DNA of 64,000 bases from Azadirachta indica. Lineage: Eukaryota; Streptophyta; Magnoliopsida; Sapindales; Meliaceae. Position numbers and translations under genes: made by a program. Below, piece after piece: positions 14,266 through 63,625 of this stretch. Below the pieces are notes generated by a model. That model made no database searches. It saw nothing but the letters and a program-made list of their open reading frames with translations, and was not told where the DNA came from. Location of the stretch: NCBI GenBank assembly GCA_022749755.1, contig CM040445.1, forward strand, positions 558,001-622,000, given 5' to 3'. Position 1 is the first letter of the stretch; every line of letters begins with the position of its first letter.

Positions 14266-14308
<43 letters not shown>

Positions 14309-24141: not shown

Positions 24142-25627
24142 TCATTGTCGGCCATATTGTGCAGACATATTGTTCTCAGATGGAGGTGCTAACGGTGCTC
24201 TGGGTCTTGCATACTCTGCAAATATCACCCAACCATCCAGAAACTGCAAATTACAAATAAATGAATCAGTTGCCAGAAAATCAGGAGAGAAAAAAATACC
24301 AATACAATAATTACAACAAAAATAAATAAATAAGGAAAAACTTGAAAAAATAAAAAAAAAAAATTCCATTTTATAAAGCGCCCAACCAGCATCAATAAGA
24401 CAAACAATGGCATGTCAAAATATTCACTAACACAAGCATTCTCAACATCCTTCAAACAAAATATAAGATTCAAATTTTAATTCCTCAAAACTTGAACTCA
24501 AGTGAAAGGGAAGAAAATGGCTTCGTTAACCTTAAGTTTCTTCCCAATTTCTAAAGTTTCTTAGTTTCTTCCCAATTCCTAAAGTTTTCAAGAAAAGAAA
24601 CAGTGATTCTGTATCACAGTAGAAAATTAGCTTCTATCAAACTGAGTTTTAGCAATGGAAATGAGCATTTGAGAAGGATATTAAAGAGATTTAAGAGGGT
24701 GCATCACAAGGTTAGATAGTGAAGGAGTAAAGTAGTGTAAGGATATGGCAAAACCCATCTTAGCATAATGTTGCTGGCAGAGCATAAGGGAGGCACAGGG
24801 TAAAAAGGTGGATCAATTTGGTAGATATGCTCTATAACACAAATGAACAACTATATGTGACAATGCTCTATAACAAAATTGAACAACTACTACAAGTGGC
24901 TCTCACTTTACTACTATTTCAGGTCATTTACCACATTGAAGCCCTTGATCTTTGGTACATATACTTTTTCACTTGCACCAATTTTTGTTTTAATTACATG
25001 GGCCAAAATGGAAGGATTCATTTGGAAGGCTGCACAATTTTTTTTCTCAGCAATTCTAACAGCAATAGAAGAATATTTTAATATGATGAAAAGCAGTCTT
25101 AACTCATTGTAGCTCACTATGCTTTTCAGCAATCAAGGGACTACCACTCTCAAAGCTCATATTATATTTTCAGGCATTCAGGCAATATCTTGGGCCTCCT
25201 AGATATTCCTAAACTGTGAGGTTTTAGAAATCTATGTATGCACTATGTTTAAAGAGATACAACACGATTGATGATGGGCTTTCCACCTTTGTACACTTAT
25301 TGATATATTTTAGCATATTCAACAACAAAGCTCACAAGAGTATCATCCTGAATAGGAATCAGCTACATAAAAAGCTTTACAACATTTGCAAGGGAATATA
25401 AATTAAGGACTTGTTTCAACACACCTTGCCATCCATGCCCTCTATACCTTTTGCAGCATCTTCTAAGGTAGCATATCTTACAAAACCAAAGCCCTTAGAA
25501 TATCCAGATACCCTGTCAGTAACTACTCTAGCTGCAAACAGAAAAAAAGGAACAGTTAGTAATCCACAGAAGCAACAGATTAAAGAACTTAAAGAAGAAG
25601 TACAAACCATGAACCACTTCGCCAAAT
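24142..25627 (-). CDS. RRM RNA-binding protein, ORRM2-like (5' part lost in gap)
   Basis: Minus-strand exons: up to 25627-25608 (FGEVVH, cut by the N gap), 25531-25425 and 24243-24142 (stop 24144-24142). Splice phases agree and give FGEVVHARVVTDRVSGYSK, then GFGFVRYATLEDAAKGIEG, MDGKFLDGWVIFAEYARPRA. This is the second half of an RNA recognition motif: RNP1 is KGFGFVRY, with the usual β4 strand and a short C-terminal tail ending SAQYGRQ. The sequence closely recalls Arabidopsis ORRM2 (At5g54580), an organelle RRM protein of C-to-U RNA editing complexes. The transit peptide and RNP2 should lie in or beyond the gap, yet I see no matching exon in 25728-26900. The gap may collapse real sequence, or the gene may be truncated. 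The last intron is about 1.2 kb. Confidence 0.85.
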
Positions 25628-25727
25628 NNNNNNNNNNNNNNNNNNNNNNNNNNNNNNNNNNNNNNNNNNNNNNNNNNNNNNNNNNNNNNNNNNNNNNNNN
25701 NNNNNNNNNNNNNNNNNNNNNNNNNNN
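25628..25727. other. Assembly gap (100 N)
   Basis: Exactly 100 N, the conventional filler for a gap of unknown length. It falls inside an exon of the RRM gene. Confidence 0.99.
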
Positions 25728-26760
25728 GTGTAAACCTAAGTGATGTTAATGGGGAAATCTTCAAGTTCAAGGGTATGAATTGCCAATGTGGTGTCAAGGC
25801 TGGGGTGAGAATATCAAGGAGTTCAAAAAATTCAAACAAACTATATTTTGTTGCAACCGAAAGGAGAGTTGTGGGTTTCTTAGTTTTTGGAAACCAACCA
25901 AGCAGAAGTAAATGGTAATATGGTAGATATGGCAACATCAAGTATGATTTCTAGTAATGCAAGCCCAAATACATCATGTATAAAGCAACAAGGTGAATTA
26001 AATGAATAACCTAGAAAAATACCAAGGGCTTATGGAAATGCTGAGAATATAATGATGGTAATAATAGTGTTGCTATGCATTTGTATAATGCATTTTTGAA
26101 AAAAATTTCAAATAATTTGAGTTGTACATAAAAAATGTAATTGTATTCAAAATGCAAGGTGTTTGATACAATATGTTTATAGGTTTTAATATTCAATTAT
26201 TAAACGCAATTCAATCCACAAAAAGTCCAAAGGCAAGATGCATACTATTTGATACAAGATTAGTAAGCAAAATTAGTAAACATTTAATAATTGAATTTGT
26301 ATCTTATCACATGCATTCCATGTCCAAAAAGTTTTTAGAACGTCCAAAAAAGTCTGCAAAAATTCTCCAATAGTAGTTGCATAATGAATCATTGCTGCAT
26401 TCGAGGAAAAAAGTTCCTAAAATTCATTTTTTATCAATATGTTGTTAACTACTGTGTAAATAGCTTTTACAAAGAGTTGAGTAAAACTGAGCATACCTTT
26501 TGAGGTTATGCCTATGGTTAACTTGTTACTATAGCTTTTGGGAATTCATTCTTCTCTTACCAGTTGCATTTGGATCTTCTCTTTCAACTTCACTCTTCTT
26601 CTTTTAGTTCCTTGCACCTGATAAAAAAATGTAGTAAGCATAATATCAAGGTCACACTTGAATTAAAACAAGTTAAAATAGTTTAGCCTTGTACACAAGG
26701 CAGTAAAGGTTTACCTCAAAATTCTAACTTCCTATATCTAAAGTATAAAATATTAGACTA
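25728..26760. other. Intergenic or upstream DNA right of the gap
   Basis: No exon of the RRM gene and no other gene could be recognised. Confidence 0.4.
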
Positions 26761-41007: not shown

Positions 41008-42684
41008 TCACCTGACAGCTTCTAAAGCCTTTTCTTCTTCTTCGCTTACAACAAGCTTGCCCTCAGTGAACTCACAAGGCCGAATAGGAATCCCAAGCCG
41101 CTTTTGCAGCTTCTTTACAACAAATACTTCTGGCTCCTCACATATGGTTACCACAGTGCCCTTCCTGCCGAGCCGACCTGTTCGGCCAGCTCGATGTGCA
41201 TAGTGAATTGAGTCTGTAGGTAAGTCTAAATTTACCACCAGGTCACACTCAGCCACATCCAAACCCCTTGCTGAGAGTTCGTTTGTCACCAGAACTCTCA
41301 GCTCTCCATTCTTAAATTTTTTCAAGGTTGTTGATCTAGCAAGCTTGCCAAGATCCCCATGCAGCTCAGCTGCTTTTATCCCTCGAGCTTCTAGCTTGAA
41401 CACAGCATCTTTTAGCTGCTTTGTGTGGTTCATAAAGGCTATCACAGACCTGGCATCAAGTGCATGAACACACCTTCTCAATGTATCAACCTTATGTTGC
41501 AACTTTGCAACACAAAAGTAGTGTCTCAATGTGGGAGGTAATGTCAGTTCAACTGCCTGATTTGTGTTTGAGCTTGAACTAGAACTCAGCCCTGACAAAT
41601 TTACTGGTCCAGAGGGAACAGATTCAAGTGGGACAACTCTTTTTGCTTGAATAAGCAGTGGGTCATTTCCCCAGCTCCTAGCTGCTCTTATCACTGAAAA
41701 AGGCACGGTTGCAGAGACCATAATAATCTGGCGTTCAGACCTCCTGGCAAGTGAGCTTTTTTTGCTTCGCGTGAGTTTGCCCCTGATCTCCTCCCTACAT
41801 GTTCCAATATCCGGTGCATGGATTCCCGGAAATTAAAAGAAAGGAGCTCATCAATTTCATCCAATACCAGAAAACGACAACCATGAGTGTGAAGCTTCCC
41901 AGCTGCACTAATCTCTGCAATACGGCCGGGGGTCCCAACAATAATTGCTGGCTTGTTTTTCTTCAGAGCTTCTTCCTGCCTTGATCGGTTTGCACCTCCT
42001 ACAAGTTGCTGCACCACTTTCTTGTCTGAAGGTCCTAACAGCTTCTCAATCTCCCTTACAATTTGCATTCCTAGCTCTCTAGAAGGAGCCACAATTACTG
42101 CTTCAATATCTGTCTTCTTCCCAGATTCACCATCACCAGTGGAAGGTTTATTCTTCAGTGGGCCTACTTCAGACAGTATGGGAAGCAGATATGCCAAAGT
42201 CTTTCCCGAACCAGTGTAGGACTGAATCACAACATCAAGATTTTTGAGAATTGTAGGAATTTGCTGCAGACTGAACATCAGTTGGAACCTTGAAACCCTC
42301 CCTCTCTAGCCTCTCTAACAATAAAGGTGGGAGCCCAAGCTCTGAAAATGAGCTAGCTGCAAAAGGAGCTGATTCTATCTCAAGCGATTTTTTTGACCTA
42401 ACAGCTTTGATCTCATTTCTTCTAACTGCTTTCGGTTTAGTTGTGGGGACTTCAATAGCAGGACTCTGATTCTCAAGTTTGTTCACTTTATTTTTGTTTG
42501 TTGCCTCAAGCTCACTCCTGAATCCAAGGCTTGCAAGGGTAAGAGGTTCCCGATGACGACTAACTTGACTAAGGAAACGTACGCTACCATGGCACCAAGC
42601 CACCCTAGAAACAAATGATAACTTACAAAGGGGTAATGATTCCCCCACAAGGAGGAGCAATCGAGTTGAAACTAGTGCCGGCAT
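41008..42684 (-). CDS. DEAD-box ATP-dependent RNA helicase RH47-like, two apparent frameshifts
   Basis: Single-exon gene on the minus strand, about 558 codons, near the roughly 550 of Arabidopsis RH47 (At1g12770), an organelle-targeted DEAD-box helicase needed for embryo development. The N-terminus (MPALVSTRLLLLVGESL) is Ser/Arg/Leu-rich and transit-peptide-like. Motifs in order: FSELGLPPLLLERLEREGF (Q-motif region), SYTGSGKT (I), PSRELGMQ (Ia), GTPGRI (Ib), VLDEIDEL (II, DEID), VSATVPF (III), SARGLDVAECD (V), HRAGRTGRLGRKG (VI). Two single-base shifts interrupt the frame: near 42260, between DVQSAA and PTILKNLDVV (one extra base in an A run), and near 41749, between EAKKAH and ARRSERQIIMVSATV. 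Everything else is intact, so assembly errors are as likely as a pseudogene. An in-frame ATG also exists at 42720. Confidence 0.88.
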
Positions 42685-44783
42685 CTTTGGGTGAAGTTTC
42701 TTACACTGATAATTATACAATCCCTTTACAATAATACCTCGCTCCAGTATAATGTGAAAATCAGTAACAAATGAAAAGCTACCGAAACATAATGCGCATT
42801 ATTTCCCTCAAGCTGCAATTTCAAGTGCATAGAAACAAGTAAAGAAAAGTCAGCGTTAGAGTGACGGAAACATTCAATGAGCTTCTGCGAACGCAAAATG
42901 TAAAAAACAAAAAAAAAAATTGTCCAGCAAGTTAGATGCCCATTGATTTCAGAGTTTAACTCCTTCCGTCAACCATAAATGACGCAGTAAAGCTTAATCA
43001 TATAATGTTCATGGTGCGATAAAATTTTTCAGCAGCTTCCTCAACAAAAAATTTTCTTCAGAAAATCATTACCCTGATACAGGGAATCAACTCCTAACGT
43101 TCATGAAGTGGATAAAGCATAAACCCCTTTGCTGAAATGTTTAAAATTATCTCATAATTACTATTATTATCTGTTAAAAAAATATCAGAAGATAAAAGTA
43201 TTTTCACATTTGTTGAGGCATTTTGTCAAACAGTTCGAAGGCCATAGCATCAACAAATAAAAGTGCGCAGCTCCTAACTAAAACATAAAAAACTCGAAGT
43301 AAATGGAGTAACATATCAGAATCTAGGAAAAGATATTATATATACGTTGATAAGAGAGATAACAAACGAACCAGCCGTCGGGCGATTGCTTTGTTCGTTT
43401 TCTCTTGTGAAGAAAGAAATTGAAGGGGAATGGAATGGATGAATTTGGAGCTCCGGCAAAGAAAGAGAGATATAGATATTGGAAAAGATAAACGACGTCG
43501 TTTGTATGCTCTGCGAACCTGATGGAGGCACACATGATATCACATCCCTGTTTCGTTACGAGTGAAACGCATCGTTTTACACAGGAAACTCCATGGAACA
43601 ATTTTACGGACCCCGCTACCCGCAGATTTTTCTCAAAAACAAAAAAAAAATCTTATGATTGACAACAATTACTTTATTTTTTTTTTTCAAACTATCATTT
43701 AATTTTAAAAAAATAATGATATTTTAAATTATCAAAAAAACATAGAGTTGGACGATTAAACCCTTCCGTATCAAACAACCTCAACCTTCTTAATTTTATT
43801 CCAATTAAAAAATTCACCTACAAAACTCTAAGACACAGAAAATGACAACGGCGGCAACGAGTACCTAAAAAAGGAAAGTACCATCATTGCGTGAGTCTGA
43901 CCTCCCAGCTCTTATCTCGCTGCTTTCGCAGTACTTGTTACCACCGGCCGTCTCCATGAATTAGTGTTTAATTGAAGATAAAATTAAGGAGATTGGAGAC
44001 AAATTTAGAAAGATTGGGGTTATTTTATTGATATAAGTAAAATTATCTAATTTTCTATTTTTTTAATAATTTTGACGATAAAAAATACTAATATGCATTT
44101 TAAAAAATTTCTTTATAATTTTGGATAATTTTGGTACATTTTTCAAATAAATAAGACTGATGTATTACATTATTTCATTTATTATTCTATCCTATAAATT
44201 TTAATGGCAAATGCAAATATTTTTAATTTATAACGTAATTTTATTGAGACCGTGCTTGAAAACAGAAAAGAGAAAGAAATAAAAAGCATATTGAAAGGGG
44301 AAGCAATTAAACGTGCTTGGCATATTCTCACCTCCCGATTCGAAGTCTCCAGAGGTCTTGAAAGCCGTCTTATACGCAGTCGTTTCGATTCCCTTTGCAA
44401 GAAGAAAAGGAATGTGCTAAAGCAGACAGATGCACGATTATTTCCATTACCTGTTCTTTCCATTGCATTTCCAAACAGGATTTACAGGCCTTTGATTTTC
44501 CTGATCAGCAACGAGCTAGCTTCTTCGAAGGTATAAAATATTTCGTCTTTTTGCTTTGAGATTAATGCTAGGGCTGATAATTTGATTATCTTTGTTGTTG
44601 ATTTCTTAATTTCCTCTGGTTCCTAAATCTTTTTCAGCCAAAATCGGTTCTACTTGAAGCATTCTCGGCATGTTCTGGGCGTCCACAACATCAAGATGTT
44701 CAAGTAGTTTAAAAAATACACTCTCTTTATTAATTTACTGTTCATCAATTGGAGTTGTTATCATATCATCATTTTGGATACAG
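42685..44783. other. Region between RH47-like and inhibitor-2-like genes
   Basis: Contains the RH47 leader and promoter (to about 43600). A plus-strand stretch at 44250-44530 ends in AAG|GTATAA, and an acceptor TTTTTCAG lies at 44630-44638; these could be spliced leader exons of the next gene. No confident coding exon seen. Confidence 0.4.
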
Positions 44784-46424
44784 GAAACGTGTGAGTTGGA
44801 ATGAAGCAAATCTTGAGGAAATTGAGGCAAATAAACCCGTGAGGCAAAAGATAAATGAACCCAAAACACCATACCACCCAATGATTGAGGAAGATGGTAA
44901 CGATCGATATATAACTGAGTTGTCTCTGTTTCTGAAATTTGCAAAACAGATTGATTAATTTAATGGGTTTATGATCCAGTTTGTTGTTTGATTCTGTATT
45001 AGGCTGTTATTCCCGAGCATTGGATTTTGCTGATTCCGTTAGTTACACTGCGCATGCCGAAGCTATACGGAGTGCATTAAACAAAGTGGCTTTAACTGAA
45101 AGGCAGTCTACGAAATTTGGGGAATCGGTATCATCATCGTCATCTGAGGATGAGGCTGATACCAGAGAGGAAGAAGGTTCTAAAACGTAACTCTCTGTTT
45201 CAAATGTATATATGTAATATCATTTTATATCTTGACTGCGGTTCTTAATAGAGTACCAAATGTGTGGTATTGACTTTTTAATTAGTTAAGAGTTTTTTTA
45301 ATGTTACTTTTTTTTTTAAATTTTGTTTTAATTAACATTAAAAAAGAATTTTTGACAATAAAAAATTTCTTTTTAATTGAAATACTTTTAAATTTTGAGT
45401 TATTTTCAATCTTTGAGCTTGTTGAATGTTTTTAAAAGGTTATATTATTTAAAATATTTTTGTTTAAATTTAAAGATTTTATATCTTTTTATATAATATA
45501 GTCTTAAAATTTTATGTATTAAAATAATTATACAATTTTTTCTAATGATTATTTGTATTAACTAAATAATGAATATAAATTTATTAAAATTTTATTTATA
45601 AAAAATTTAATTATAAAAGTTTATCAAAAAATTATATTTAAAAAATTATACTAATTGAATCATTAATCCCTAAAATTTTGAATTGCATTTGCTTTTTTTT
45701 TTCTAACGTAATTTTTAACATTTTACTTAATTATTCACACATTCATGTTGACCCACCTACTCTTCCGCTTAACTCTCATATTTAAAGTGTGAGTTTGATT
45801 TGTCACTCGGGCTTTGTCTAAGTGGTAAGGAATCCGGCCTTCGAGCCTTGCAGTCAACAAGTCTCATGTAAACTTTCTTTTATAAAGTGAGGGTAAATAT
45901 TTCAAGTCTCATTTAGACTTCCCTCTATAAAGTGAGGGTAAATATTATTTAAAATAAGTGTAGTTATTCGAATTGTAGTATATGTGATTTTATTATAATT
46001 TTTTTTTAAAATTTTAACCTAATATTAATAGTATGTAAATATAGTATTCAAAAAAAAGAGTGTGAGTTTGACTTGAATTCATATTGATTCACGTCCTGTA
46101 ACGGATCTTTATTTTTTATATCATATTTATATGTTCTGACCTAACTTATTTCAAGATTTCAACTAATTGTGTATATGCTCATAATTTTGTGCCTCATTTA
46201 TTTATTTAGGATCTGTAAAAGAAAGGCAAGATGTGAACTTTGAAGAGCATAGAAGGGCACATTATGATGAGTTCAAGAAGGTTAAGGAATTGCGGGAAAA
46301 GGGTAACTTGCTAGATTACAAAGATGATTATTCAGAGGAAGAAGAGGTTCATGTCAGAGAAATACACATTCATGAGAGCAGTGATGACATTCTGCAAACA
46401 ATAAACATTCAGGGAAATTGGTGA
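44784..46424 (+). CDS. Protein phosphatase 1 inhibitor-2-like (IPP-2 family), first exon not found
   Basis: Exons 44784-44896, 45003-45176 and 46210-46424 join in phase. Inhibitor-2 proteins are disordered regulators that bind and block PP1 catalytic subunits. Landmarks: [18 protein letters not shown] followed by [15 protein letters not shown] (the PP1-binding N-terminal block), [13 protein letters not shown], a serine/acidic patch ([15 protein letters not shown]) and [19 protein letters not shown] (the conserved C-terminal helix block). The tail ([20 protein letters not shown]) is longer and less conserved than I expect. The first exon must end two bases into a codon. I find no ATG in that phase upstream except a weak candidate at about 44670 (MFWA with a poor GTCCAC donor). 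Either the first exon is remote or short, or the copy is a 5'-defective paralogue. Confidence 0.75.
45805..45870 (+). repeat. Possible tRNA-derived SINE head (inside intron)
   Basis: GTCTAAGTGGTAAGGAATCC resembles a polymerase III box A, and CTTCGAGCC sits where box B would start. It lies in the last intron of the inhibitor-2-like gene. It does not fold into a full tRNA by eye. Weak call. Confidence 0.3.
45868..45950 (+). repeat. Imperfect tandem duplication, about 41 bp x 2
   Basis: Two adjacent copies of CAAGTCTCAT-TA-ACTT…TATAAAGTGAGGGTAAATATT, directly after the SINE-like head. Confidence 0.7.
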
Positions 46425-49740: not shown

Positions 49741-51364
49741 AAGTTAAGGTTGGCTAAAATGCAGAAATCTTTAACCTAAGATGGAAAACTATACTAACCG
49801 AGAACCTAGAAACCTGAAGACTTAAGGTGGAGTTGTAATCTTAACTTGAGGAGGATCAACAATAGTATATAGGAACTCAAAACCTAACACTTTAAAGACT
49901 TTAAGTAGGGTTGTCATGCTAACTTAAGAATGATCAATTATATTTACCAAAAACTTGAAAACTTGAGGATTCAAGGACTTAAGGTGAAGTTATCATTTTG
50001 ACTTGAGGAGAATGAGTGACTAAGATCTTGCGAACTCAAGGAGAATCCATAAAGCTAAATTAGGTTTTAGGTTTCTCAAGGGTATTTTTGTAAAAGAATT
50101 TAGGGATTATAAATATCTTACATGTCGAGGAAATCAATGAGATGATTTGAGAGAGAGAGTCATCTTGTAAATATTTTATCTTTTATTTATAATGAAAAGA
50201 CTTTATATCTATTTATTCTATAAACATAGGCAATCCTGTCGAGCAATGTAAATTCTTGTCTGTTTTTATCTCTACTTTGATCTTATTTGTTTTTTCTATG
50301 TTTTGTGTTTGTTCTCTAGTCGAACATTGTTAGGGTTTCATCAAGGGGCAATCTTGATTCATTTATATTAGTGTTAGGGCATTATTATGAGGTTTGTTTT
50401 TTTTCTCAACAACTGATATTAGAGCATCAGTTCATTAGTAAAAATATCTCTAACTAATTTTAATATAGAGAATTCCGATGGTGACAATGGCTTAAATGAG
50501 AAAATAAGATGACAATTACTGAAAGAAGAAGAGGAGAGAGATATTATGAGGAAAGCTTGAAACAAAATTGTGTTAAATTTAAGTAATGAGTTCTAATAGA
50601 AGTTTCAAAGCAGAAGACAATTGTTAGATTTTTGAACAACTTAAAAGCTTCACGTTACCAAATCTTTGGCCGATATAATATACTTGAAGAAAATATTGTA
50701 TAATTTTGCAATGGCTGAAGGAAACCTATTTAAATAACACATTGATTTGTTCAGCGAGGTAGTTATATTGATGTGAAGATTAAAGATGAGAACCATATAG
50801 TGATCTTGTTGAGTTTTTTGCCAAAATCATATAATCATTTTGTTGAAACTTTGACATGTAATCGAACCTTACTCTCTATAACAAATGTTAAGGTAGCTCT
50901 GAACCTCACTCTCTATGACAAATGTTAATTCAGGTTGTGCTTTTATATATGCCTCAACTTGAATATATTTGGTTTTTGACAAACATATAATGGTGGTAAA
51001 ATATTAATGAGTAAAAATAAAGCATGTAAGGTCATCAAGATTAAAAGTGTTAAGATTAGACATGGAATAGTAAGCGAATTACATCAGGTTCGGCATATAC
51101 CATATTTGAAAAGAAACTTGATCTCTTTAGAAATTTTAGATTAGATATGATTTGTATTTAAGGTTGAGAAAGGAATCTTGATAGTAGTTAACGGTTTTAT
51201 GATATTCATGAAAAGGGCAAAGAGAAATAGTTTATATGTCTTCGATAAATTTATTGTCATTGTTTCTGTCAATGCAGCAACAAGATTAGATAATAGCAAG
51301 ACTAGCCTAGAGTATATGATGTTACACTATAGAAGTGAAAAAGGATTGAAATAGTTATGCAGAC

Positions 51365-52766
51365 TGCTACAACTTAAAGGTTGTAACTCCCAAGTATAGG
51401 TTGTCTCAAGTAATAAAGTTCGAAAGTTCGAGTGTCGGTCCACAGGGAATATGTTATATTAAGTCTACAAGTCCAAAGGTCTAAATATTACAAATTCGAA
51501 TATTCCAATGGAGTGAATTTACTTATTGTCAAATTTAAATTCTATATTATTATATATTAGGTCATGAGGGATCCATTTTAATGATTTGTATAGAACTTAT
51601 TCTTGATCTTTTTTTTTAAAGAAAAATACAATTAAGAATCAAAAGAAGTGATCTTAATTGGATGATGAAAACAAAACATTTAAGCACAAAAAAATTAAAA
51701 GACTTGCCTTTTAGTTGATGGTAAAAAACTATAAGTTGCCTTACTCTTGATATGTAGAAAATATCCAAGCATTCAATGTACCATTTGTTAACAATGAATC
51801 AAGGTTTCTAACAATTCAAAATCACTTGCAAAATATAGAACTCAATCAATAAAAAGATTAACAATGAAGAACAAAACAAAAGATCAAAGAACAAAACTAT
51901 AAAATCATCAAAAGTTCACCCTTAGCCCTAATTATGAAATTAGAAATACATCATTTAATTAAAGTTCAAATTACAACAATAAAATAGAAATGGAAAACAA
52001 AACTGGTTTCCCTCCTTACTTCCACGTCTTCCTTTATATAGGTAAAACAAAAGACATTCCACATGTGTGAACATAATTTAGTCAATTTCCAATTAATCAC
52101 GCTTTACCAACTTCCAACATATTTTTGACCATGAAAACTACCGAATTTCGTAAAGCATCCTTCTTCAAAGTTGTAGGTGGATGACTCATCTTTCTAATGG
52201 TCCATATCTTGCTCTTATTTCTATTTTAGACCATGAGTTGTGTTGAAAATAGGCAGAGATGTTCAAGTCACATTTCTCCACCGCCCTTCTAGAATGATAG
52301 CTCTTTTTGGTAACCGATCAGTTGAAATTTGAGAAAGTACAAAACATAAACAATTTAGATCCTTTTCTCAGCTTTCTATATCATCCAACCATGTAATTTT
52401 TCGTTACATATTTAGGGAGATACGGCCCAAATACGGAAGTATGTTGGACTAGTTCAAAGATGCGCTTGAGTTCTGTTGAAGCCCAATTTCGTCCCATTAA
52501 TTGCTCGAACTAGTCCAACCTTTGGCTTACAAAGTTGTGAAATCATGAGTTTATATTTATCTATCCCAAGAATCGTATCAATTGATAATTTGGATTGAAA
52601 AATACGCTCATTATACGAAACCTGCGCAAAACCAACTATTTAGTCTAATTCATGTTTTACAATTCAATATAAAGAAATATGCTTCATTATTGGGGAATAG
52701 AAGGACATTATTAAGTGTAAATCATAATATTTCTTTTGATAAACCTACACTTTTAAACATTCATCA
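51365..52766 (-). repeat. 3' LTR of the gypsy element (1402 bp)
   Basis: On the plus strand it starts TGCTACAACTT and ends ACATTCATCA. A TATATAAAG box on the minus strand lies at about 52032-52041. Aligned end to end with 60133-61534. Confidence 0.95.
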
Positions 52767-52778
52767 CACCCCCCAACC
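52767..52778 (-). promoter_or_regulatory. Polypurine tract
   Basis: GGTTGGGGGGTG on the minus strand, directly next to the 3' LTR. A second, similar tract (GGTTGGGGGGAGTG, with TTGGGGACAATGTT before it) lies at about 53000-53040. Confidence 0.8.
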
Positions 52779-53183
52779 AGCTTATTACTAGTCTCTAGTA
52801 ATATAAGCAATATCATTTAGAGTTGATTTACAGAATTTACATTCAAAGTAAAAATTATTCTTTTCCTTTTCATCTTATCAAAATAAACAAACTCTCACTT
52901 AAAAATTTACTATATATGTGTCAAATACTCATCAGTGGAATTATTCATAAACCTTCTTTTTGTGCTTTTATAAAAAAAAAATTGTTACTTATGTCGACTA
53001 CACTCCCCCCAACCAGATTGCAACATTGTCCCCAATGTTTAAATATAAAGAGGTATAGTATAGAGAATATTACCTGAGATAGTAGTTATTGAAACACAAG
53101 TAAAACCTGAAACAAACTTAAGCAAAAATAACGAAAAAAAATAATAAAATGCAATGAGTAAAAAAAAAAAGAGATAAGAAAAG

Positions 53184-53834
53184 TTACAAATGAAGCGACA
53201 AATCCAGCTTTCCCTTTTTACTGCTTTCACTTGACCATTCTAATCGTGCCATTGTTGGATCTGATTCATAGACAAAGTTCTGCAACTGATTGATCAAGTC
53301 ATTAGCAGTCGGAGCAGAAATGAGGAGTTTGCGAGCCATCTGTGAAATAAAATTCTGTTCTACAGCATGATCAAGAAAAAACAACAACTTGTTAAAGAAA
53401 CCATTAACATTTAACAATCCTATGGGTTTTTGATGAACGGTAAGTTGTGCCCAAGATGCAATTTGAAAAATTTCTTCTAAGGTCCCAAAACCACCTGGTA
53501 AGGCAATAAAAGCATCTGCAGAATCAAGCATTTTAACAGTTCTTTCATGCATTGTTGAGACCATTAGTTCTTCTCCAATTGTTTTGCCAGATATGTTACC
53601 TGCAGATAAAGCCTTTGGTATGATACCTATGACTTCACTTCCTCTTATCTGTGCGGCAGTTGACACACACCCCATTAACCCAAGGCTACCTCCTCCATAC
53701 ACTAGATTAAATTTTCGATCAGCTAAAACTCGACCCAGGTTGTCTGCTGCTTTTACAAACTCTTCACCTTTCCCAGAACTTGACCCACAAAAAACACAAA
53801 TAGTTTTAATTTAATGAGCAGAAACTCCTTTCAT
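53184..53834 (-). pseudogene. Captured LOG-like cytokinin-activating enzyme gene inside the retrotransposon
   Basis: LOG (LONELY GUY) enzymes are cytosolic phosphoribohydrolases that release active cytokinin bases from their ribotides. The minus-strand frame reads without intron from ICVFCGSSSGKGEEF through LVYGGGSLGLMGCVSTAA, GIIPKALSAGNISGKTIGEE and MHERTVKML to the hallmark ADAFIALPGGFGTLEE and SWAQLTVHQKPIGLLN, ending KGKLDLSLHL at 53184, about 215 residues, full family length. The catalytic PGG.GT..E and the MHER arginine are intact. An ATG at 53834 is in frame but codon 8 is TAA (53813-53811), just before IKTICVFCGSS, so initiation is blocked. Plant LOG genes normally have several introns, so an intronless copy in the sense orientation of the element, between pol and the 3' LTR, implies capture of a spliced mRNA. 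The donor gene is not in this window. Confidence 0.88.
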
Positions 53835-54119
53835 TTTTTTTTTTTGCAGTCTTTTACCCTCGTCAGTGATTCAAATTTCTTATGAAAATAAAGAAGTGAG
53901 GTCCTGCATTTATACAACTTAAAGAGAATGCATTAATGAAACCAACTGTTGTCATAAAAGTTAAAATTTAAAAATGTAAAAATGTCAAAGATAACAACTA
54001 ATATAGGAATCTAAAACATAAAAATTTCAACGACAGCTAAAAGTAAATATTTATAGATAGTTGTGATTGTGGCTCACATCTTCCTCTGATTTTATGTCCA
54101 GTAATGGCTTAAACGCCCT

Positions 54120-54365
54120 TTATGGGTCGAGGATTGACTTCCTATCCAATTTTCTTACAAATTGGCAAACAGGGTCTTTTAAAATCAGATTCCCAAGACT
54201 ATAACGATCACGTTCTTTTTGAAATAATGTATACAAATTGAGAATTTCACGTTGCACATATTCACTAGGATGCGTCTCAAGAGTCAATAAGATATTATCT
54301 AAAGACTCCTTACTCAGTCCATCCTTAATGAATTTAATTTTATCTTCTCTATTAGTAGACACCAT
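54120..54365 (-). CDS. Small ORF of unknown function in the retrotransposon (81 aa)
   Basis: ATG-initiated frame on the element's sense strand, 15 bp after the previous ORF ends, upstream of the LOG-like frame. It starts MVSTNREDKIKFIKDGLSKE and is rich in charged residues and Leu, predicted helical, with no membrane segment. I do not recognise a family. Its close packing with the preceding ORF suggests the two were acquired or kept together. Confidence 0.4.
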   Translation of the reverse strand: MVSTNREDKIKFIKDGLSKESLDNILLTLETHPSEYVQREILNLYTLFQKERDRYSLGNLILKDPVCQFVRKLDRKSILDP

Positions 54366-54380
54366 GCCTAGAGAACGACA

Positions 54381-54668
54381 TTACTTGTTACAGGTTGAAC
54401 GTGCACAATTGTGACACACTTGTAACCTTTTCGCTCTTCGTTTCTTTGTAAAAGAGCTCTTAACTAAACTAGGCATGCGTGAAACAAATGAATCAGAAAA
54501 CTCACCTGCTAAACGTACCTTTGCTTCAATTATCCATCGCACATCTTCAGGAATGACTTTTTGCATAAGCATTCTTAATCTTGCACACCTAGCTTGGTAC
54601 ATTTTTCGTAGAACATCTTTAGGAAAAGAAGGAAAATATGTTTGCAATCTAGAAAGAATGACATCCAT
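54381..54668 (-). CDS. Small basic Cys-containing ORF of unknown origin (95 aa)
   Basis: ATG at 54668 (MDVILSRLQTYFPSF) reading to the stop at 54381-54383; the frame extends upstream to 54758 through a hydrophobic run that is probably not coding. The C-terminus has a basic patch followed by cysteines (KKRRAKRLQVCHNCARSTC, that is C-x2-C-x4-C). This layout, basic RRAKR just before C-x2-C, recalls small Cys-rich nucleic-acid-binding proteins of some filamentous plant RNA viruses (betaflexivirus type). The resemblance is short and may be chance. It could also be a retroelement nucleocapsid-like accessory protein. Confidence 0.4.
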   Translation of the reverse strand: MDVILSRLQTYFPSFPKDVLRKMYQARCARLRMLMQKVIPEDVRWIIEAKVRLAGEFSDSFVSRMPSLVKSSFTKKRRAKRLQVCHNCARSTCNK

Positions 54669-54868
54669 AATGAAAGAAAAGAATAGAAAAAGAAGTGAGA
54701 GAAAAAAAAAGAGTATCAGTAATTTTGGGCAACTGAAAGAACCGACTTGAAGAGTCACGGAGTACCGTTATCCGTCACTTGACCAGGAAAGTAACTGAAA
54801 ACAAACAATGGAATAAAAAAAAAATTAATAACACAAGAAAACAAGTAATGTATATACAAAAAAAAAAA

Positions 54869-56160
54869 TCATCCAGTGTTGTAAACAGGTTCATTCAAAG
54901 TGATAGATTCTAACTCACTTGGAAAATTCTCAAAGAATGGCTTTAAACGGTGTCCATTAACTTTAAAAACATTACCATTTTTGGGGTTCTTAATCTCAAC
55001 AGCGCCATGTGGGTAAACCTTCTTAACAATGAAAGGACCTGTCCATTTTGAGCGAAATTTGCCAGGAAATAGATGCAATCTTGAATCATACAAAAGAACT
55101 TTTTGTGAAGGTTCAAATGATTTTCTAATGTTATATTTATCATGAAACACCTTCATTTTCTTTTTGTAAATTCTAGAATTCTCGTAAGTTTCATTCCTAA
55201 TTTCTTCGAGTTCATCTATTTGGAGTTTTCTTAATGATCCTGCTTTATTTAAGTCAAAATTAAGCATTTTAATGGCCCAAAAAGCTTTATGTTCTAATTT
55301 CACCATTAGGTGACAAGCCTTTCCAAAAACAAGTCTATAAGGAGACATGCCAAATGATGATTTAAAAGCAGTTCGATAAGCTCAAAGTGCATCGGTTAGT
55401 CTTAAAGACCAATCCTTACAATTCGGTTTTACCGTTTTTTCCAAAATATGTTTTATTTCTCTATTGGCAAGTTCAACTTGTCCACTTGTTTGTGGGTGAT
55501 AAGAGGTTGACACTTTATGTGTAATTCCATATTTTTTCATTAAATTCTTAAAAGGCTTATTACAAAAATGTAAACCTCCATCACTTATTATGGCTCGAGG
55601 TACTCCAAATCTTGAAAAAATGTTTTCCTTCAAAAATTTCAAAACAATTTTATGATCATTATTTTTGCAAGAAATTGCCTCTACCCATTTTGAAACATAG
55701 TCAACTCCAACTAAAATATATTGATACCCAAAAGAAAACGGAAAAGGACCCATAAAATCAATACCCCAACAATCAAATATTTCAATGACTAAAATAGGAT
55801 TTAATGGCATCATGTTTCTACGAGATATTCCACCTAATTTTTGACAACGGTCACATGTTTTACAAAATGTATTTGTGTCTTTAAATAAGGTGGGCCAATA
55901 AAATCCACATTGCAATATTTTCGCAGCAGTTTTTTTTGAAGAAAAATGACCACCACATGCTTCAGAATGACAAAAAGAAATGATATTTTGAATTTCATTG
56001 TTAGTACACATCTTCTTATAATTTGGTCAAGGCAATATTTGAAAAGATATGGATCATCCCAAAAGAAATTGCGTACCTCCTTTAAAAATTTCTTTTTATC
56101 TTGAGCATTCTAATAATTTGGCATTTGACCTATAACAAGAAAATTGACAATATCAGCAAA
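54869..56160 (-). pseudogene. Gypsy integrase region with stops and a frameshift
   Basis: Sense strand is minus. It follows FNVSILP, whose next codon is TGA (56163-56161), with ADIVNFLVIGQMPNY, a TAG (56112-56110) and [13 protein letters not shown] one-base shift near 55997 leads into the zinc finger and core: [59 protein letters not shown] (catalytic D), [11 protein letters not shown] (second D) and [15 protein letters not shown] (E). TGA at 55384-55382 replaces a Trp (…LTDAL-W-AYRTAFK). The C-terminal domain then runs [14 protein letters not shown] to [18 protein letters not shown] and ends at 54869. Confidence 0.9.
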
Positions 56161-57342
56161 TCAAGGTAAAATAGAAACATTGAAAAGTTGCTCATCAGGG
56201 AAATTGTCATTAATCGGTGTTGTCTTAATCGATTCTTCAAACATAAGTCTTGACAACTGATCAGCAACCACATTTTGTACTCCCTTTTTGTCTTGAATTG
56301 TGAGATCAAATTCTTGAAATAGTAGAATCCACCTAATCAATCTAGATTTAGCGTCTTTTTTTGAAAGAATGTGACCAAGCACAATACCATTTGTGACCAT
56401 GAAATGACATTTTTCCCAATTAAGCACAAGATTTTTTTCTTTACACCTAATCAAAACTTTTTCCAAGTTAGATAAACAATCATCAAATGAATCACCAAAC
56501 ACAGAAAAATCATCCATGAAAATTTCAAGAAATCGTTCAACCATATCACTAAAAATACTAAGCATGCATCTTTGAAATGTAGCTAGTGCATTACACAATC
56601 CAAATGGCATCCTTCTATATGCAAAAGTTCCAAATGGACAAGTGAAAGTGGTCTTTTCTTGGTCTTCAAGTGCAATTTCAATTTGGTTATACCCAGAATA
56701 CCCATCTAGGAAACAATAAAATGCATGTCCAGCTACCCTTTCTAACATTTGATCCATGAATGGTAACAGGAAATGATCTTTCCTAGTCATTGAATTGAGT
56801 TTCCTATAGTCAATGCACATTCTCCAGCTAGTAATTGTTCTAGTTGGAATTAATTCATTATTTTCATTTTTGACTACAGTAACTCCAGATTTCTTAGGTA
56901 CAACTTGTGTAGGACTTACCCATGTGCTATCAGAAATAGGATAAATGATCCCTACATCTAAAAGTTTAAGAACTTCATTTCTCACTACCTCTTTCATATT
57001 AGGATTCAGCCTACGTTGCATTTGTCTAGATGATTTGGCATTATCTTCCAAATATATCTTATGTGTGCAAATCAAAGGACTAATTCCTTTTATGTCAGCT
57101 ATTGTCCATCCTAAGGCATATTTATGCAATCTTAGAATTTTGAGCAACTTACATTCTTGAAGAGCACTGAGTTTAGAAGAAATTATCATCGGAAAAGTTT
57201 CATTAACACCCAAGAAAGCATCCTTGAAGTCAGATGGTAATGGTTTCAATTCAAGTTTTGGTGGTTGAACACTCGATGGCATCGGTTTATCAACTCGTTG
57301 AGGTAAGTCTTCAAATTTTGGTCTCCATCCATTAACTTTCAA
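56161..57342 (-). pseudogene. Gypsy reverse transcriptase with RNase H region largely deleted
   Basis: Reverse transcriptase blocks WRMCIDYRKLNSMTRKDHF, DGYSGYNQIEIALEDQEKT, TFAYRRMPFGLCNALATFQ and FMDDFSVFG (active site) are intact. After NGIVLGHILSKK the reading jumps straight to DAKSRLIRWILLFQEFDLTI and QDKKGVQNVVADQLSRL, skipping the connection and most of RNase H (I estimate 150-170 residues from the family layout). The junction (about 56352-56363) falls in a Ser-Lys-Lys-Asp codon run, fitting a microhomology deletion that kept the frame. Confidence 0.9.
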
Positions 57343-57525
57343 AACCTAAGAAGATTTTAAAAGAGAATAAATATGAGATACTTCAAAATTTTCATCAAAA
57401 TTGAAATCATTGCAACTATTTAAACAAGAATCCAAGGGATCAGAAAAAGATGAAACATTAAAGTAGTCATGAACGAGTTCCTCGATATAACTAACTTCAT
57501 GCATGTCATCATTTTCACTAGGTTG

Positions 57526-57920
57526 CTAACAAATATTAAACACATTCATTTCCAATGTCATGTTTCCTAAGGATAATTTTAGAACTCCATTTCTACAATT
57601 AATTATTGCATTAAATGTAGTAAGAAATGGACGTCCTAATATGACAGGAATTTGGGTGCTTGAGTTAGAAACAGGTTGTGTGTCTAAGACAATAAAATCT
57701 ACAGGAAAGTAAAATTTATCTACTTGAACTAACACATCCTTAAGTATTCCTCGTGGTATTTTCACAGAACGATCAGCAAGTTGAAGTGTTGTAGAAGTAT
57801 GTTTAAGCTCACCTAAACCTAATTGCTCATACACTGAATATGGCAACAAATTAACACTTGCACCAAGATCAAGTAAAGCATGGTTTATCCTAAAGTTTCT
57901 AATTACACAAGAAATGGTGG
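57526..57920 (-). pseudogene. Gypsy aspartic protease domain
   Basis: Retropepsin-type segment: NHALLDLGASVNLLPYSVYE (active-site D-[L]-G-A), QLADRSVKIPRGILKDVLVQ and IPVILGRPFLTTFNAIIN. It ends with a TAG (57528-57526) inside gag-pol, before the linker to reverse transcriptase. Confidence 0.85.
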
Positions 57921-58268
57921 GACAACCAGGATCTTTATATTTTGGTGGAGTGTTATGTTGAATAATCGAACTAACATTCTTAGTTAAAAATGCTTTCTTT
58001 TGAACATTAAGCTTCCTTTTAACAGTGCATAAATCTTTTAAAAATTTGGCATAAGAAGGAACTTACTTAATTGCATCTAATAAAGGAATGTTAATTTTGA
58101 CTTGCTTAAAAAGTTCAAAAATTTCAGAATTTTAGTTCAACTTTTGAATTGGTTGCAATCTTTGAGGAAAAGGAGCAGGGATAGGGCATTTTTTAACATC
58201 ACACATCTTAAGTTCAACATTATTTTCCTCACTCACTAATTTTGATGGTTCTTTAGGTTCAATCTCTT

Positions 58269-59714
58269 TCAAAAAAATGGTTTTATCAATGACCTACCAC
58301 TTCGGAGAGTAGTGATGGAGTTGGCATTCTCGTGTTGTGTGCCATTTGAGTTAAAATCACTTACATGAAATTGACCTGCTAGATTTGGCTGTGGTTGAGC
58401 AGGAAATTTACCTTTCTCTTGACTGCGCAAAGCTGAGGTCAATGTTGAAAGTGTATTCTTGATATCATCAATGGTTTGTGATGTTTGATTGTTTATGCTT
58501 GTTTGCCCTTGCATGAATGTTTGCAATGTTTCCTCAAGAGTTTTCAAATGTGATGAACGGTATGATGGAAAATTTGAAGGTCTTTGAGGTGGTGGATGGG
58601 CATGATTATCATTTCTCTAACTAAAATTTGGGTGATTTCTCCATCCAGGATTGTATGTTTCAGAATATGGAGAATTAAAGGAAAAAGACTTTTTAAAGGA
58701 ATTCATAGAATTTGCTTGGTCATGCAACACTTCTTTAAAAATAGGAATATTTGGACAATCTTGAGTGGAATGTCCCATGACTTCACAAATTTCACAAATT
58801 TCATCATTATGCACAGATTTGACCTCTTTAACTTTCCTTAATTCCATGGCTTCAATCTTTCTCGTTAAATTTGTAATTCTAGCACTTAGATCATTTTCTT
58901 GACTCAAATTATATTTACCCCCACTAGAACTAGTCATATTAGATCTAATTGAATTTTCAAAGGAGATAGAGGTTTGCCAGAATTGAGAGTTCTCAGCTAA
59001 ATGATCTAAATACTCTAAAGCTTCTTCTGGGTCTTTGTCTACAAATTCACCATTATACATCGTTTCAACAAATTGTTTTGTCTCTGGTGTTAACCCTTCA
59101 TAAAAGAAACTTATCGTACGCCATTTTTCAAAACCATGGTGTGGGCATGAATTCAACAAGTCTTTAAATCTTTCCAAACATTGAAAATAGGTTTCATTTC
59201 CTTTTTGACAAAAATTTTGAATTTGTCTCTTGAAAGCATTTGTTTTATGTATTGGAAAAAATTGCTTTAAAAACTTGGTTTGCATTTCTTGCTATGTGCC
59301 TATAGATCTAGGTCTTAATGAATTAAGCCATGTTTTTGCTTTATCTTTTAAAGAAAAAGGAAAAAATTTTAGCTTAACTATTTCTTCACTACATGTTTGA
59401 TCTATAAATGTGGCACATACTTCCTCAAATTCTTTCAAATGTAAATAAGGACTCTCAGACTCTAAGCCATGGAAATTAGGAAGTAAAGGAATCATACCGA
59501 GCTTAAATCTGAAGTTATTTGCATTGAGCGGAAAAATAAAGCATGAAGGAGATGAATTTCGAGGAGGCTGCAAATATTCACGCATAGTTCGAACATGATG
59601 ATTTTCATTTTCTCCATGTATACTTTCATTTTCAGCCATAGTGTTAGTTGTGTGTGAGTTTGAAGATGAATCAAACAAATTTCCAAAGGAGGTTTCAGAA
59701 TTACCTTTCACCAA
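58269..59714 (-). pseudogene. Gypsy gag with zinc knuckle, interrupted by stops
   Basis: The gag core reads IPLLPNFHGLESESPYLHLK, FPFSLKDKAKTWLNSLRP, then TAG (59294-59292) where Trp is expected. It continues MQTKFLKQFFP, CLERFKDLLNSCPHHGFEKW, FYEGLTPETKQFVETM and the CCHC knuckle CEICEVMGHSTQDC. A second TAG (58619-58617) stands where Trp is likely (NFS-W-RNDNHAH). The frame then continues to about 58269, where it degenerates. Confidence 0.85.
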
Positions 59715-60108
59715 TCGACGAGAATGAGGATCACAATACTATCCAAGCATAAAAATAATAATAATAATAAAAAAACACAATACAATAAATGTTAGCACAA
59801 TAAAACAAATAAAAAAAAAAGAAAAGAGGTGGTATAACTTTCCTCTTAATAAAATTATTGTAAATGAAAATAACAACACAATACGTAATAAAAAAAATTA
59901 AGAAAGGTGACAAAGCCTACCATGAACAAAAATTAGGTGGTATGTGTAGAACCAACCATAATGTAAATATAAATGAGCGGCTGAGCCTCCCAATAAAAAT
60001 AAATAACAACAAGTAAATTAAAAAATATATATATTGAAGTTAGAGTTAGAGGTTAAAGTTAGTAAAAGAAAATTAAACAAGAACTAGTAAACTTTATACA
60101 AACCGTAT

Positions 60109-60126
60109 TCCCCGGCAATGGCGCCA
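60109..60126 (-). promoter_or_regulatory. tRNA-Asp-type primer-binding site
   Basis: TGGCGCCATTGCCGGGGA on the minus strand, 6 bp after the 5' LTR. It is complementary to the 3' end of plant tRNA-Asp with a single mismatch (A for G at position 8). Confidence 0.85.
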
Positions 60127-60132
60127 AAAATT

Positions 60133-61534
60133 TGCTACAACTTAAAGGTTGTAACTCCCAAGTATAGGTTGTCTCAAGTAATAAAGTTCGAAAATCCGAG
60201 TGTCGGTCCACAAGGAATATGTTATATTAAGTCTACAAGTCTAAAGGTCTAAATATTACAAATTCGAATATTCCAATGGAGTGAATTTGCTTATTGTCAA
60301 ATTTAAATTCTATATTATTATATATTAGGGCATGAGGGATCTATTTTAATGATTTGTATAAAACTTATTCTTGATCTTTTTTTTTTAAAGAAAAATACAA
60401 TTAAGAATCAAAAGAAGTGATCTTAATTGGATGATGAAAACAAAACATTTAAGCACAAAAAAATCAAAAGACTTGCCTTTTAGTTGATGGTGAAAAACTA
60501 TAAGTTGCCTTACTCTTGATATGTGGAAAATATCTAAGCATTCAATGTACCATTTGTTAACAATGAATCAAGGTTTCTAACAATTCAAAATCACTTGCAA
60601 AATATAGTACTCAATCAATAAAAAGATTAACAATGAAGAACAAAACAAAAGATCAAAGAACAAAACTATAAAATCATCAAAAGTTCACCCTTAGCCCTAA
60701 TTATGAAATTAGAAATACATCATTTAATTGAAATTTAAATTACAACAATAAAATAGAAATGGAAAACAAAACTGGTCTCCCTCCTTACTTCCACGTCTTC
60801 CTTTATATAGGTAAAACAAAAGATATTCCACATGAGTGAAGATAATTTGGTCAATTTCCAATTAATCACGCTTTACCAACTTCCAACATATTTTTGATCA
60901 TGAAAACCACCGAATTTCGTAAAGCATCCTTCTTCAAAGTTGTAGGTGGATGACTCATCTTTCTAATGGTCCATATCTCGCTCTTATTTCTATTTTAGAC
61001 CATGAGTTGTGTTGAAAATAGGCAGAGATGTTCAAGTAACATTTCTCCACCGCTCTTCTAGAATGATAGCTCTTTTTGGTAACTGACCAGTTGAAATTTG
61101 AGAAAGTACAAAACATAAACAATTTAGATCTCTTTCTCAGCTTTCTATATCATCCAACCATGTAATTTTTCGTTACATATTTAGGGAGATACGGCTCAAA
61201 TACGGAAGCATGTTGGGCTGATTCAAAGATGCGCTTGAGTTCTGTTGAAGCCCAATTTCGTCTCATTAATTGCTCGAACTAGTCCAACCTTTGGCTTACA
61301 AAGTTGTGAAATGATGAGTTTATATTTGTCTAGCCCAAGAATCGTATCAATTGATAATTTGGATTGAAAGATACGCTCATTATACGAAACCTACGCAAAA
61401 CTAACTATTTAGTCCAATCATGTTTTACAATTCAATATAAAGGAATATGCTTCATTATTGGGGAATAGAATGACATTATTAAATGTAAATCATAATATTT
61501 CTTTTGATAAACCTACACTTTTAAATATTCATCA
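60133..61534 (-). repeat. 5' LTR of the gypsy element (1402 bp)
   Basis: Same length as the other LTR. It carries the sense-strand TATA box (TATATAAAG, minus strand, about 60801-60809), the presumed promoter for the gag-pol-LOG transcript. Confidence 0.95.
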
Positions 61535-63625
61535 CAGACATGGAGTGTTTGATGCTAATAAGATTTAATCATTAAGCTTTTGTGAAAAATGTATCTTAGA
61601 AAATTCTACAAGAGTGAAGTTTGGAATTGTTGAGCAAAAAAGAAAAAGGTTTTAGAATATATTCACTCAAATTTATAGGGACCTTTCTTAGATGGTTTCA
61701 AAATATTTATTATCCTTAATAAATGATTACTCTAAAAGGACTTCGGTCTATATGCTAAAATCTAAAGATCAAGTGCTTCAAAAGTTAAAAAAATTGAAGT
61801 TGCAGATAGAGAACTAGACAAATAAAAGGGTGAAATGGCTACAAATTGACAATGACATATTGTAATTAAGAATTAGAGAACTTTGCAAGAAAAGTGATAT
61901 TTCAAGATAGAGAACTATGGAATGACCTTAAAATAGAATAGTCTTACTAAAGGGATGAGTAAGAATTTAATGGAGAAGATAAGATACTTATTAGTGTAAC
62001 TAAGGCTTTAAAGTTTGTATAGGCAGAAGATTGATGATAATAACATATTTTGTAAATAGAAGCCCATCAACGATAATTAAGCTCAAAACTCCTACTAAGA
62101 TATGATTTAGGAAGAAAGCTTTATAAAATCACTTGAGAATCTTTAGTTGTCTTGCACATGCACATACAAAATCAAGGGAAGCTTGATACTATAATGATAA
62201 AAGGTGTGTTTGTATGTTATCGAAAGGGTATTAAAGGGTATAAGCTTTATTGTCCCTCACTTAAGTCATCGAGATTCATCCTAAGTAAAGATGTAAAGTT
62301 TCATGATGAAGTTTTACTTGATTTTCAATAAAAAGGATAAAAGTCAAACAATGACCCTACATAAGAACTAGAATTTGAGAGGTTTCACATTAGAAAGAAA
62401 ACACTAGGATATTGGGTTCTAGGCTCCTCGATTCAGAACTTAACTCAAACGAATAAGAAAGAGACTTGATATGAAGAACAAGTTGAGCAAACAAGTCAGG
62501 ATGATGTTGATGACTATTAATTAACAAATGATAGAACAAAGAGACTAATCAGACCTTCGACTAAGTTTTGTTATGCTGATTTGATAGCATATGCATTGAA
62601 GTCTGATTAGTAAAGAATCTACTTGTCACAAAGAAGTTACGAATTCAAACCATAAGCAAAGATAGATTGAAGCTGTGCAAAAAGAAATAAAATCTTTGAT
62701 GAAAAATCATACTTGATAGCTTGTTAACTAGCCAGAGACTAAGGAAGTTTTTAGGTCTAAATAGACCTATAAGATGAAAGAGTTATTTTAGTGAAACAAA
62801 AAGATACAATGGAAAACTTATTGCCAAAGTCTTCACTCAAAGAAAATAGGTTGACTTTACCAAAGTATTTTCTCTAGTGGTGAAACTAACTCTATTAAAG
62901 CACTTGTAGTATTTATAACATCTCAAAACTGGAAAATTAAGCAAATGAATGTCCAGATAGCCTTCGTACATGTTGATATGTTTGAGAATATTGTGCTAAC
63001 TCTACTTAAGGGATGTGTAATTATCAAAAAAAAAAAAAACTGGTGTATTTATTGAGAAAGTCACTTTATGGCCTCAAGTAATCACCGAGAGAATGGTTCT
63101 TGAAATTTGATGAATTTATAGTTCAAATAAAACTACATCATAAGTAAACATGACAATTATTTATACTTTAAAACTCTCAGGGCTAAAATAACATGCAATT
63201 CATGTACTCTTGTATGTAGATGAAATGTTGATAGATTTTCAAAGCAAAGTTGAGATTGATAAGTTGAAAAGCAGTTGAATAAAGCAGTTGAAATGGAGGC
63301 TACGTAAGGCCAACAAAGAAAATCTTAGGCATTAAGTTGAGAAGGATTATAAACGAAGGATCAATATTTTTATCACAAGAGAAGTATATCATGAGGGTTC
63401 TAAAAAAATTTAGGATATAGAATTCCAAGTCATGACACCTCTAGCAGCTCATTTTAAGCTCTAAAGTTTGTAAAGTCTAGAGATAGAAAATGAGAAGAAA
63501 CAAATAGAAGTAATTCCTTAAGCAAATGTGGTTGGAAGCTTGATGTATGCTATGATATGTACAAGGCTAGACATTGCTCATATAGTTAATGTGTGGTTAG
63601 CATGTTTCATGGCTAACTTTAGAAA

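What the first reader, a model, noticed from the sequence alone, without database searches (positions are those of the whole stretch)
53184..53834. A cytokinin-activating LOG gene captured, intronless, by a Ty3/gypsy retrotransposon
Seen: a full-length, intronless LOG-family frame with intact PGGFGTLEE lies in sense orientation between pol and the 3' LTR, inside an element with paired LTRs and target duplication. Known: plant LOG genes carry several introns, and LTR elements can pick up host mRNA by template switching. Inferred: an ancestor of this element packaged a LOG transcript. If other copies are intact, this would be a mobile, LTR-driven source of a hormone-activating enzyme. This copy has a TAA at codon 8, so it is probably dead.
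Basis: partly seen in the sequence, partly recalled or inferred. Interest (0 to 1): 0.88.

Follow-up and report, generated by a model that had tools for sequence, protein, structure and literature searches.

The report
Retrotransposon carrying LOG and virus-like gene
A common plant jumping gene carries an old, intron-free copy of a cytokinin-activating enzyme gene, which was known before, but beside it sits a gene resembling silencing-suppressor genes of plant RNA viruses, and most element-type copies of the enzyme that I listed end in a repressor-like tail not seen in the cellular ones.

Summary
A 10.2-kb Ty3/gypsy element (1,402-bp LTRs, 5-bp target duplication, PBS- and PPT-like sites) lies on the minus strand. 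Between pol and the 3' LTR, in sense, is a LOG frame that crosses the intron positions of the intron-bearing host LOG genes read. This copy looks dead. LOG in Citrus LTR elements is already in print, so the headline is not new.

The slot is shared: 28 of 30 loci fetched by the neighbouring ORF also hold LOG, and the genome has at least 152 LOG matches. The capture is old: 39 element-type LOGs stand on one side of a 100/100 branch from 18 cellular LOGs.

Two further features. (1) An ORF between pol and LOG matches Pfam Viral_NABP and Carla_C4 (flexivirus silencing-suppressor families) above curated cut-offs in an open copy; four paper searches listed no such report. (2) 110 of 131 element-type LOGs end in LxLxL, the EAR repressor pattern, against 0 of 29 cellular LOGs.

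Against function: recent copies show no purifying selection (LOG pN/pS 0.80, interval includes 1), structural matches to viral proteins are weak, and there are no expression data.

The parts
51360..51364 (.). target-site duplication CAGAC, left copy
   Evidence: sequence at the LTR border
51365..52766 (-). 3' LTR
52767..52778 (-). PPT-like GGTTGGGGGGTG next to the 3' LTR
   Evidence: read from the sequence; label by position
53184..53834 (-). LOG ORF, ATG at 53834, TAA at codon 8, tail KKGKLDLSLHL
54120..54668 (-). NABP-like ORF (182 aa in open copies), one internal stop in this copy
   Evidence: open copies
54869..56026 (-). integrase, split by an in-frame stop
56161..57345 (-). reverse transcriptase; no RNase H domain found
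57526..58062 (-). aspartic protease
58617..59738 (-). gag-like frame, split by an in-frame stop; zinc-knuckle-like CEICEVMGHSTQDC
   Evidence: identified by position and by eye, no Pfam scan
60109..60126 (-). PBS-like TGGCGCCATTGCCGGGGA
   Evidence: tRNA not tested
60133..61534 (-). 5' LTR
61535..61539 (.). target-site duplication CAGAC, right copy

Best explanation
The window holds one dead copy of a multi-copy Ty3/gypsy LTR retrotransposon (probably Athila lineage; the lineage name is recalled, not tested). Downstream of pol the family carries two accessory genes in sense: a ~182-aa basic, cysteine-rich protein of the flexivirus NABP type, and a LOG-type enzyme captured long ago from a spliced cellular mRNA. 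Shown: anatomy, shared slot, absence of introns, separate old branch of element LOGs, LxLxL tail. Inferred: both ORFs are expressed from the 5' LTR, perhaps through a spliced subgenomic RNA; the NABP-like protein dampens host RNA silencing of the element; LOG either raises active cytokinin in cells where the element replicates or, with its basic plus LxLxL tail, acts in the nucleus on host transcription.
For: LOG frame unbroken over host intron positions. LOG present in 28 of 30 NABP-selected loci; NABP nearly whole in 28 of 30 LOG-selected loci, partial in one, absent in one; the two sets share copies and both include the window copy. 39 element-type LOGs versus 18 cellular ones, branch 100/100. 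An open NABP copy scores 33.4 bits on PF05515 (cut-off 23) and 22.2 on PF01623 (cut-off 20.9); three more copies pass PF05515, one of them also PF01623. 30 of 37 and 28 of 37 relatives match these families at E<=0.01; 0 of 6 shuffles and not the reversed sequence. Signs of the same gene order in other plants: an Acer model with NABP and LOG fused (P0251), a Rhamnella model with integrase C-terminus and NABP fused (P0220; integrase by eye), consecutive Xanthoceras locus tags for NABP and LOG (P0127, P0247), and two NABP/LOG pairs listed with equal contig lengths, 8723 and 4511. LxLxL tail in 110 of 131 element-type LOGs, 0 of 29 cellular. PGGxGTxxE kept in 115 of 132 element-type LOGs of 205-232 aa.
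Against: Among recent copies pN/pS is 0.80 (0.60-1.12) for LOG, 1.01 (0.73-1.46) for NABP and 1.12 (0.74-1.76) for an integrase fragment; nonsynonymous to synonymous counts do not differ between shared and single variants: LOG 101:33 and 130:41. Since pol looks the same, the test has little power, but it gives no support. A neutral simulation leaves 2.5% of frames open at 65% protein identity, so open frames in databases, which are selected for being open, are not proof of selection. Structural matches to viral NABPs are weak: best E 0.099 on a poor model and 0.69 on a better one; no PDB match. Of 17 Sapindaceae-type element LOGs none has the LxLxL tail. No RNA evidence.
Confidence: 0.6

Rival explanations
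1. LOG and NABP are passengers: acquired once, copied along because they do no harm, and decaying neutrally in each copy, with no role for the element.
For: No purifying selection visible among recent copies. Most sampled copies lack one or both full frames: both present in 7 of 30 and 8 of 30 loci of two overlapping sets.
Against: LOG is 216-217 aa long in 103 of 132 element-type proteins from many plants, with the active-site motif in 115 of 132 (the list holds proteins called from open frames, which biases it). NABP relatives show a mean column identity of 73% over 37 sequences from several plants. The LxLxL tail is kept in 110 of 131.
Confidence: 0.25
2. The NABP match is convergence of a basic zinc-finger protein, not kinship with flexivirus suppressors; it is an ordinary element protein of unknown function.
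For: Structure searches give no significant match; scores are modest, and the reversed sequence reached 23.4 bits on an unrelated family, below its cut-off. The C-terminal half matches nothing.
Confidence: 0.25
3. LOG is a stray retrocopy that inserted into one element by itself, unrelated to the family.
For: The frame has no introns; intron-poor LOG copies outside the element also exist in this genome (C5 pair).
Against: The slot is filled in 28 of 30 sampled loci, and element LOGs form their own branch across plant families.
Confidence: 0.03

Closest known systems
LOG/YgdH-bearing LTR elements of Citrus and Populus (PMC9289625, passage; Steinbauerova et al. 2011, not held, abstract recalled)
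   Same: LOG domain inside plant LTR elements; Citrus sinensis, C. clementina and P. trichocarpa named in the passage
   Different: The passages seen do not mention an NABP-like neighbour or a LOG tail; here the family, its neighbour, copy state and wider distribution are described
Orchid Ty3/gypsy elements with an AlkB-type RNA demethylase (PMC9289625)
   Same: Ty3/gypsy family that kept an extra host-type enzyme ORF
   Different: Other enzyme; no virus-type suppressor ORF mentioned in the passages seen
Flexivirus NABP / cysteine-rich suppressors (chrysanthemum virus B p12, PMC7588395; mandarivirus CRPs, PMC12172455)
   Same: Pfam families PF05515 and PF01623; basic stretch plus zinc-finger-like cysteines
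   Different: Encoded by an integrated retroelement; extra conserved C-terminal half; no tested activity
Cellular plant LOG (At2g37210, PDB 2a33; LOG7-type proteins)
   Same: Whole domain and PGGxGTxxE motif
   Different: No introns; separate branch; basic plus LxLxL tail
Insect LINEs with viral helicase domains (PMC4686597, PMC5563155: search listing only; PMC6338049: passages)
   Same: Retroelement with a gene of RNA-virus kinship, proposed to suppress silencing
   Different: Other element class, other viral gene, animals

Membership tests
Ty3/gypsy LTR retrotransposon | paired LTRs with target duplication | tested here: met
Ty3/gypsy LTR retrotransposon | protease, RT and integrase in the order PR-RT-IN | tested here: met
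   RNase H domain not found in this copy
Athila lineage | RT/IN phylogeny with Athila references | not tested
   no reference set at hand; name recalled
LOG (cytokinin riboside 5'-monophosphate phosphoribohydrolase) | PF03641 domain and PGGxGTxxE | tested here: met
LOG (cytokinin riboside 5'-monophosphate phosphoribohydrolase) | enzyme activity | not testable with these tools
   needs an assay
Flexivirus NABP | Pfam profile match above curated cut-off | tested here: met
   for open copies; the window fragment alone scores 20.2, below the cut-off of 23
Flexivirus NABP | significant structural similarity | tested here: inconclusive
Flexivirus NABP | silencing suppression | not testable with these tools
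   needs an assay
EAR-motif repressor | LxLxL pattern | tested here: met
   window tail LDLSLHL
EAR-motif repressor | binding to TOPLESS-type corepressors | not testable with these tools
   needs an assay

The most novel reading that the evidence does not exclude
A eudicot retroelement lineage, present in rosids and an asterid (by common descent or by spread between hosts), carries a retrovirus-like pair of accessory genes for host manipulation: a silencing suppressor related to those of plant RNA viruses, and a LOG enzyme turned into a nuclear, EAR-tailed protein that recruits corepressors. One mobile element would then both blunt RNA silencing and alter hormone or transcription state in the cells where it moves.
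Probability: 0.22. Interest if true: 0.88.

Novelty: new variant of a known kind. Interest (0 to 1): 0.66.

Why it matters
Many extra ORFs of plant LTR elements have no known origin or role. Here one has a clear cellular origin and the other a likely kinship with a studied viral suppressor family, in elements found in several plant orders. If the NABP-like protein suppresses silencing, it would show one way such elements escape host control. If the LOG is active or recruits corepressors, the element carries its own hormone or transcription lever. It also bears on where flexivirus suppressors came from: the direction of transfer is open.

Tried and rejected
Recent local capture from a host gene: disfavoured, because the exons of the host LOG genes read are about 42-60% identical to the window LOG in ungapped matches, while P0002 and Melia P0004 are 83-85%. 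Only 4 intron-bearing host loci were read of the loci found by two motif patterns (5, 10, two shared), so a closer host gene could have been missed. Xanthoceras P0090 as the cellular donor: rejected, since its near relatives form clusters of up to 39 members and one lies at a locus tag next to an NABP protein. A pattern for a P0090-like host gene found 0 matches. L063 as an ancestral empty slot: rejected; the gap (window 52702-54052) takes LOG and about 65 bp of the LTR, with a 5-base overlap at the join. Relatives in viral contigs: none for either gene. Purifying selection among recent copies: not found. Structure searches: weak. A Pfam-family search for further NABP loci in the genome did not complete. 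Papers: for LOG capture, 33, 42, 54, 89 for NABP-type genes in retroelements, 65 and 73 for function; I made no search for an EAR tail on LOG proteins.

Full report
Observation. The frame at 53184-53810 (-) matches PF03641 and PF18306 (E=1e-40 and 8e-16) and aligns over 193 residues to Arabidopsis At2g37210 (PDB 2a33, E=2e-62). An ATG at 53834 is followed by TAA at codon 8. The element runs 51365-61534 with 1,402-bp LTRs, K2P 0.0345 and CAGAC target duplications. With assumed rates of 2.5e-9 to 1.3e-8 per site per year (recalled), the insertion is about 1.3-6.9 My old. No RNase H domain was found in the RT frame, and the gag-like and integrase frames are each split by a stop, so this copy looks dead.

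The family. In the LOG list I counted by eye 30 matches that cover at least 199 residues without an internal stop, the window copy among them (its codon-8 stop lies outside the match). Of 30 loci fetched with NABP (L039-L068), 28 have LOG. Of 30 fetched with LOG (L009-L038), 28 have nearly the whole NABP, one a 200-nt piece and one none. The two sets share copies and both hold the window copy. In L009-L038 an ATG-to-stop LOG frame is found in 12 of 30, an NABP frame in 19 and both in 7; in L039-L068 the numbers are 8, 21 and 8 of 30.

Origin of LOG. Host LOG loci at C4, C10 (two) and C13 are split near residues 28/29, 61, 70, 105, 128 and 176 of the element protein; not every break is resolved in each locus. 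The C5 pair runs through most of these positions and looks like an intron-poor, degenerate LOG copy. In a 57-row tree the 39 element-type proteins (7 of them the Sapindaceae type) lie on one side of a 100/100 branch from 18 cellular LOGs. Which rows are 'cellular' was set by motif and annotation for the database proteins and by introns for the host loci. The window LOG groups with P0002 and Melia P0004 (100/99). Names attached to element-type LOGs include Melia, Xanthoceras, Acer, Reevesia, Diplodiscus, Pterospermum, Populus, Parasponia and the asterid Paulownia (lineages of Reevesia, Paulownia, Rhamnella and Xanthoceras checked). I had no DNA for these plants, so that each protein lies in an element is inferred from multi-member clusters (up to 327), uniform length and fused or neighbouring gene models. 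Spread between hosts is not excluded.

The neighbour ORF. The window copy of 54120-54668 has one internal stop and as a fragment scores 20.2 bits on PF05515, below the cut-off of 23. The open copy in L043 (182 aa) scores 33.4 bits over residues 7-123, and 22.2 on PF01623 (cut-off 20.9). Of three more open copies, three pass PF05515 and one passes PF01623. 414 relatives were found, 120 listed, each listed row bearing PF01623 as a precomputed domain. 30 and 28 of 37 aligned relatives match the two families at E<=0.01; six shuffles and the reversed sequence match neither. Conserved are a basic stretch, C-x2-C-x4-C-x3-C, and a C-terminal half that matches nothing. A first AlphaFold model (pLDDT 58.3) had 35 viral-library hits: of the first 27, 24 are named, all flexivirus proteins, 22 of them called suppressor or nucleic-acid/RNA-binding protein, but the best E is 0.099. 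A better model (pLDDT 72.6) had 15 hits, of which ranks 2 and 3 are such proteins, best E 0.69, and no meaningful PDB match. So the kinship rests on the profiles. For function I saw: PMC7588395 (abstract and opening), where p12 of chrysanthemum virus B is a nuclear transcriptional activator and cytoplasmic silencing suppressor; PMC12172455 (abstract and one section), where a mandarivirus CRP suppresses silencing.

The LOG tail. Among 177 LOG-like proteins listed, 110 of 131 element-type ones have LxLxL in the last 12 residues, usually after basic residues; 0 of 29 cellular and 0 of 17 Sapindaceae-type do. The 131 include two cellular-type and three Sapindaceae-type rows that the text rule missed, and truncated proteins. 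LxLxL is a consensus of the EAR repression motif (PMC9956375, abstract). That this tail works as one is inference.

Selection. Among recent copies pN/pS is 0.80 (0.60-1.12) for LOG (33 rows), 1.01 (0.73-1.46) for NABP (28) and 1.12 (0.74-1.76) for an integrase fragment (22); rows dropped for coverage: 2, 2 and 8. Nonsynonymous:synonymous counts for shared and single variants are LOG 101:33 and 130:41, NABP 61:19 and 87:24, integrase 32:7 and 67:18. Five divergent LOGs, chosen for open frames, give dN/dS 0.73-1.15 against the rest. The data show neither constraint nor a difference from pol.

Expression, inferred. A pyrimidine-rich stretch ending TTTTCAG lies upstream of the NABP ATG, and that ATG is the first one after it. 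This would fit a spliced subgenomic RNA, as described for barley Bagy2 (PMC7264820, parts 1 and 2 of 3 read). There is no RNA evidence.

Literature. PMC9289625 (passages) reports the YgdH/LOG domain in LTR-element consensuses of Citrus sinensis and C. clementina, and in P. trichocarpa with a filter off, in line with Steinbauerova et al. 2011. That paper is not held; I recall its abstract as naming two Athila-like elements with LOGL4 similarity. Searches listed no paper that by title or abstract start reports an NABP-type gene in a plant retroelement; PMC6338049 and PMC3136472 were checked by passages. The library holds only open-licence papers.

Noticed in passing
window 53004-53015: A second PPT-like stretch (CCCCCCAACCA on the + strand) lies between LOG and the 3' LTR, matching the one next to the LTR at 52767-52778.
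   Followed up: no
L075 and L076 (C5:8740100-8748100, C5:18958600-18966600): Two near-identical LOG-like stretches run through host intron positions with little break and look degenerate; possibly LOG retrocopies outside the element.
   Followed up: no
Melia protein P0004: This LOG gene model begins with residues like the element's gag leader (DPHSHRLVKGNSET; window leader CDPHSRRLVKGNSET), so the annotators joined the 5' leader to LOG; possibly a spliced element RNA.
   Followed up: partly
window 45858-45946: Two head-to-tail copies of a 44-base stretch, 89% alike.
   Followed up: no
window 12944-16710 and 41008-42798: Frames that by eye look like an organic-cation-type transporter and a DEAD-box RNA helicase (names recalled, not searched).
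   Followed up: no
window, 100 N near 25.7 kb: A run of unknown bases shows as X in a frame at 25528-25950.
   Followed up: no
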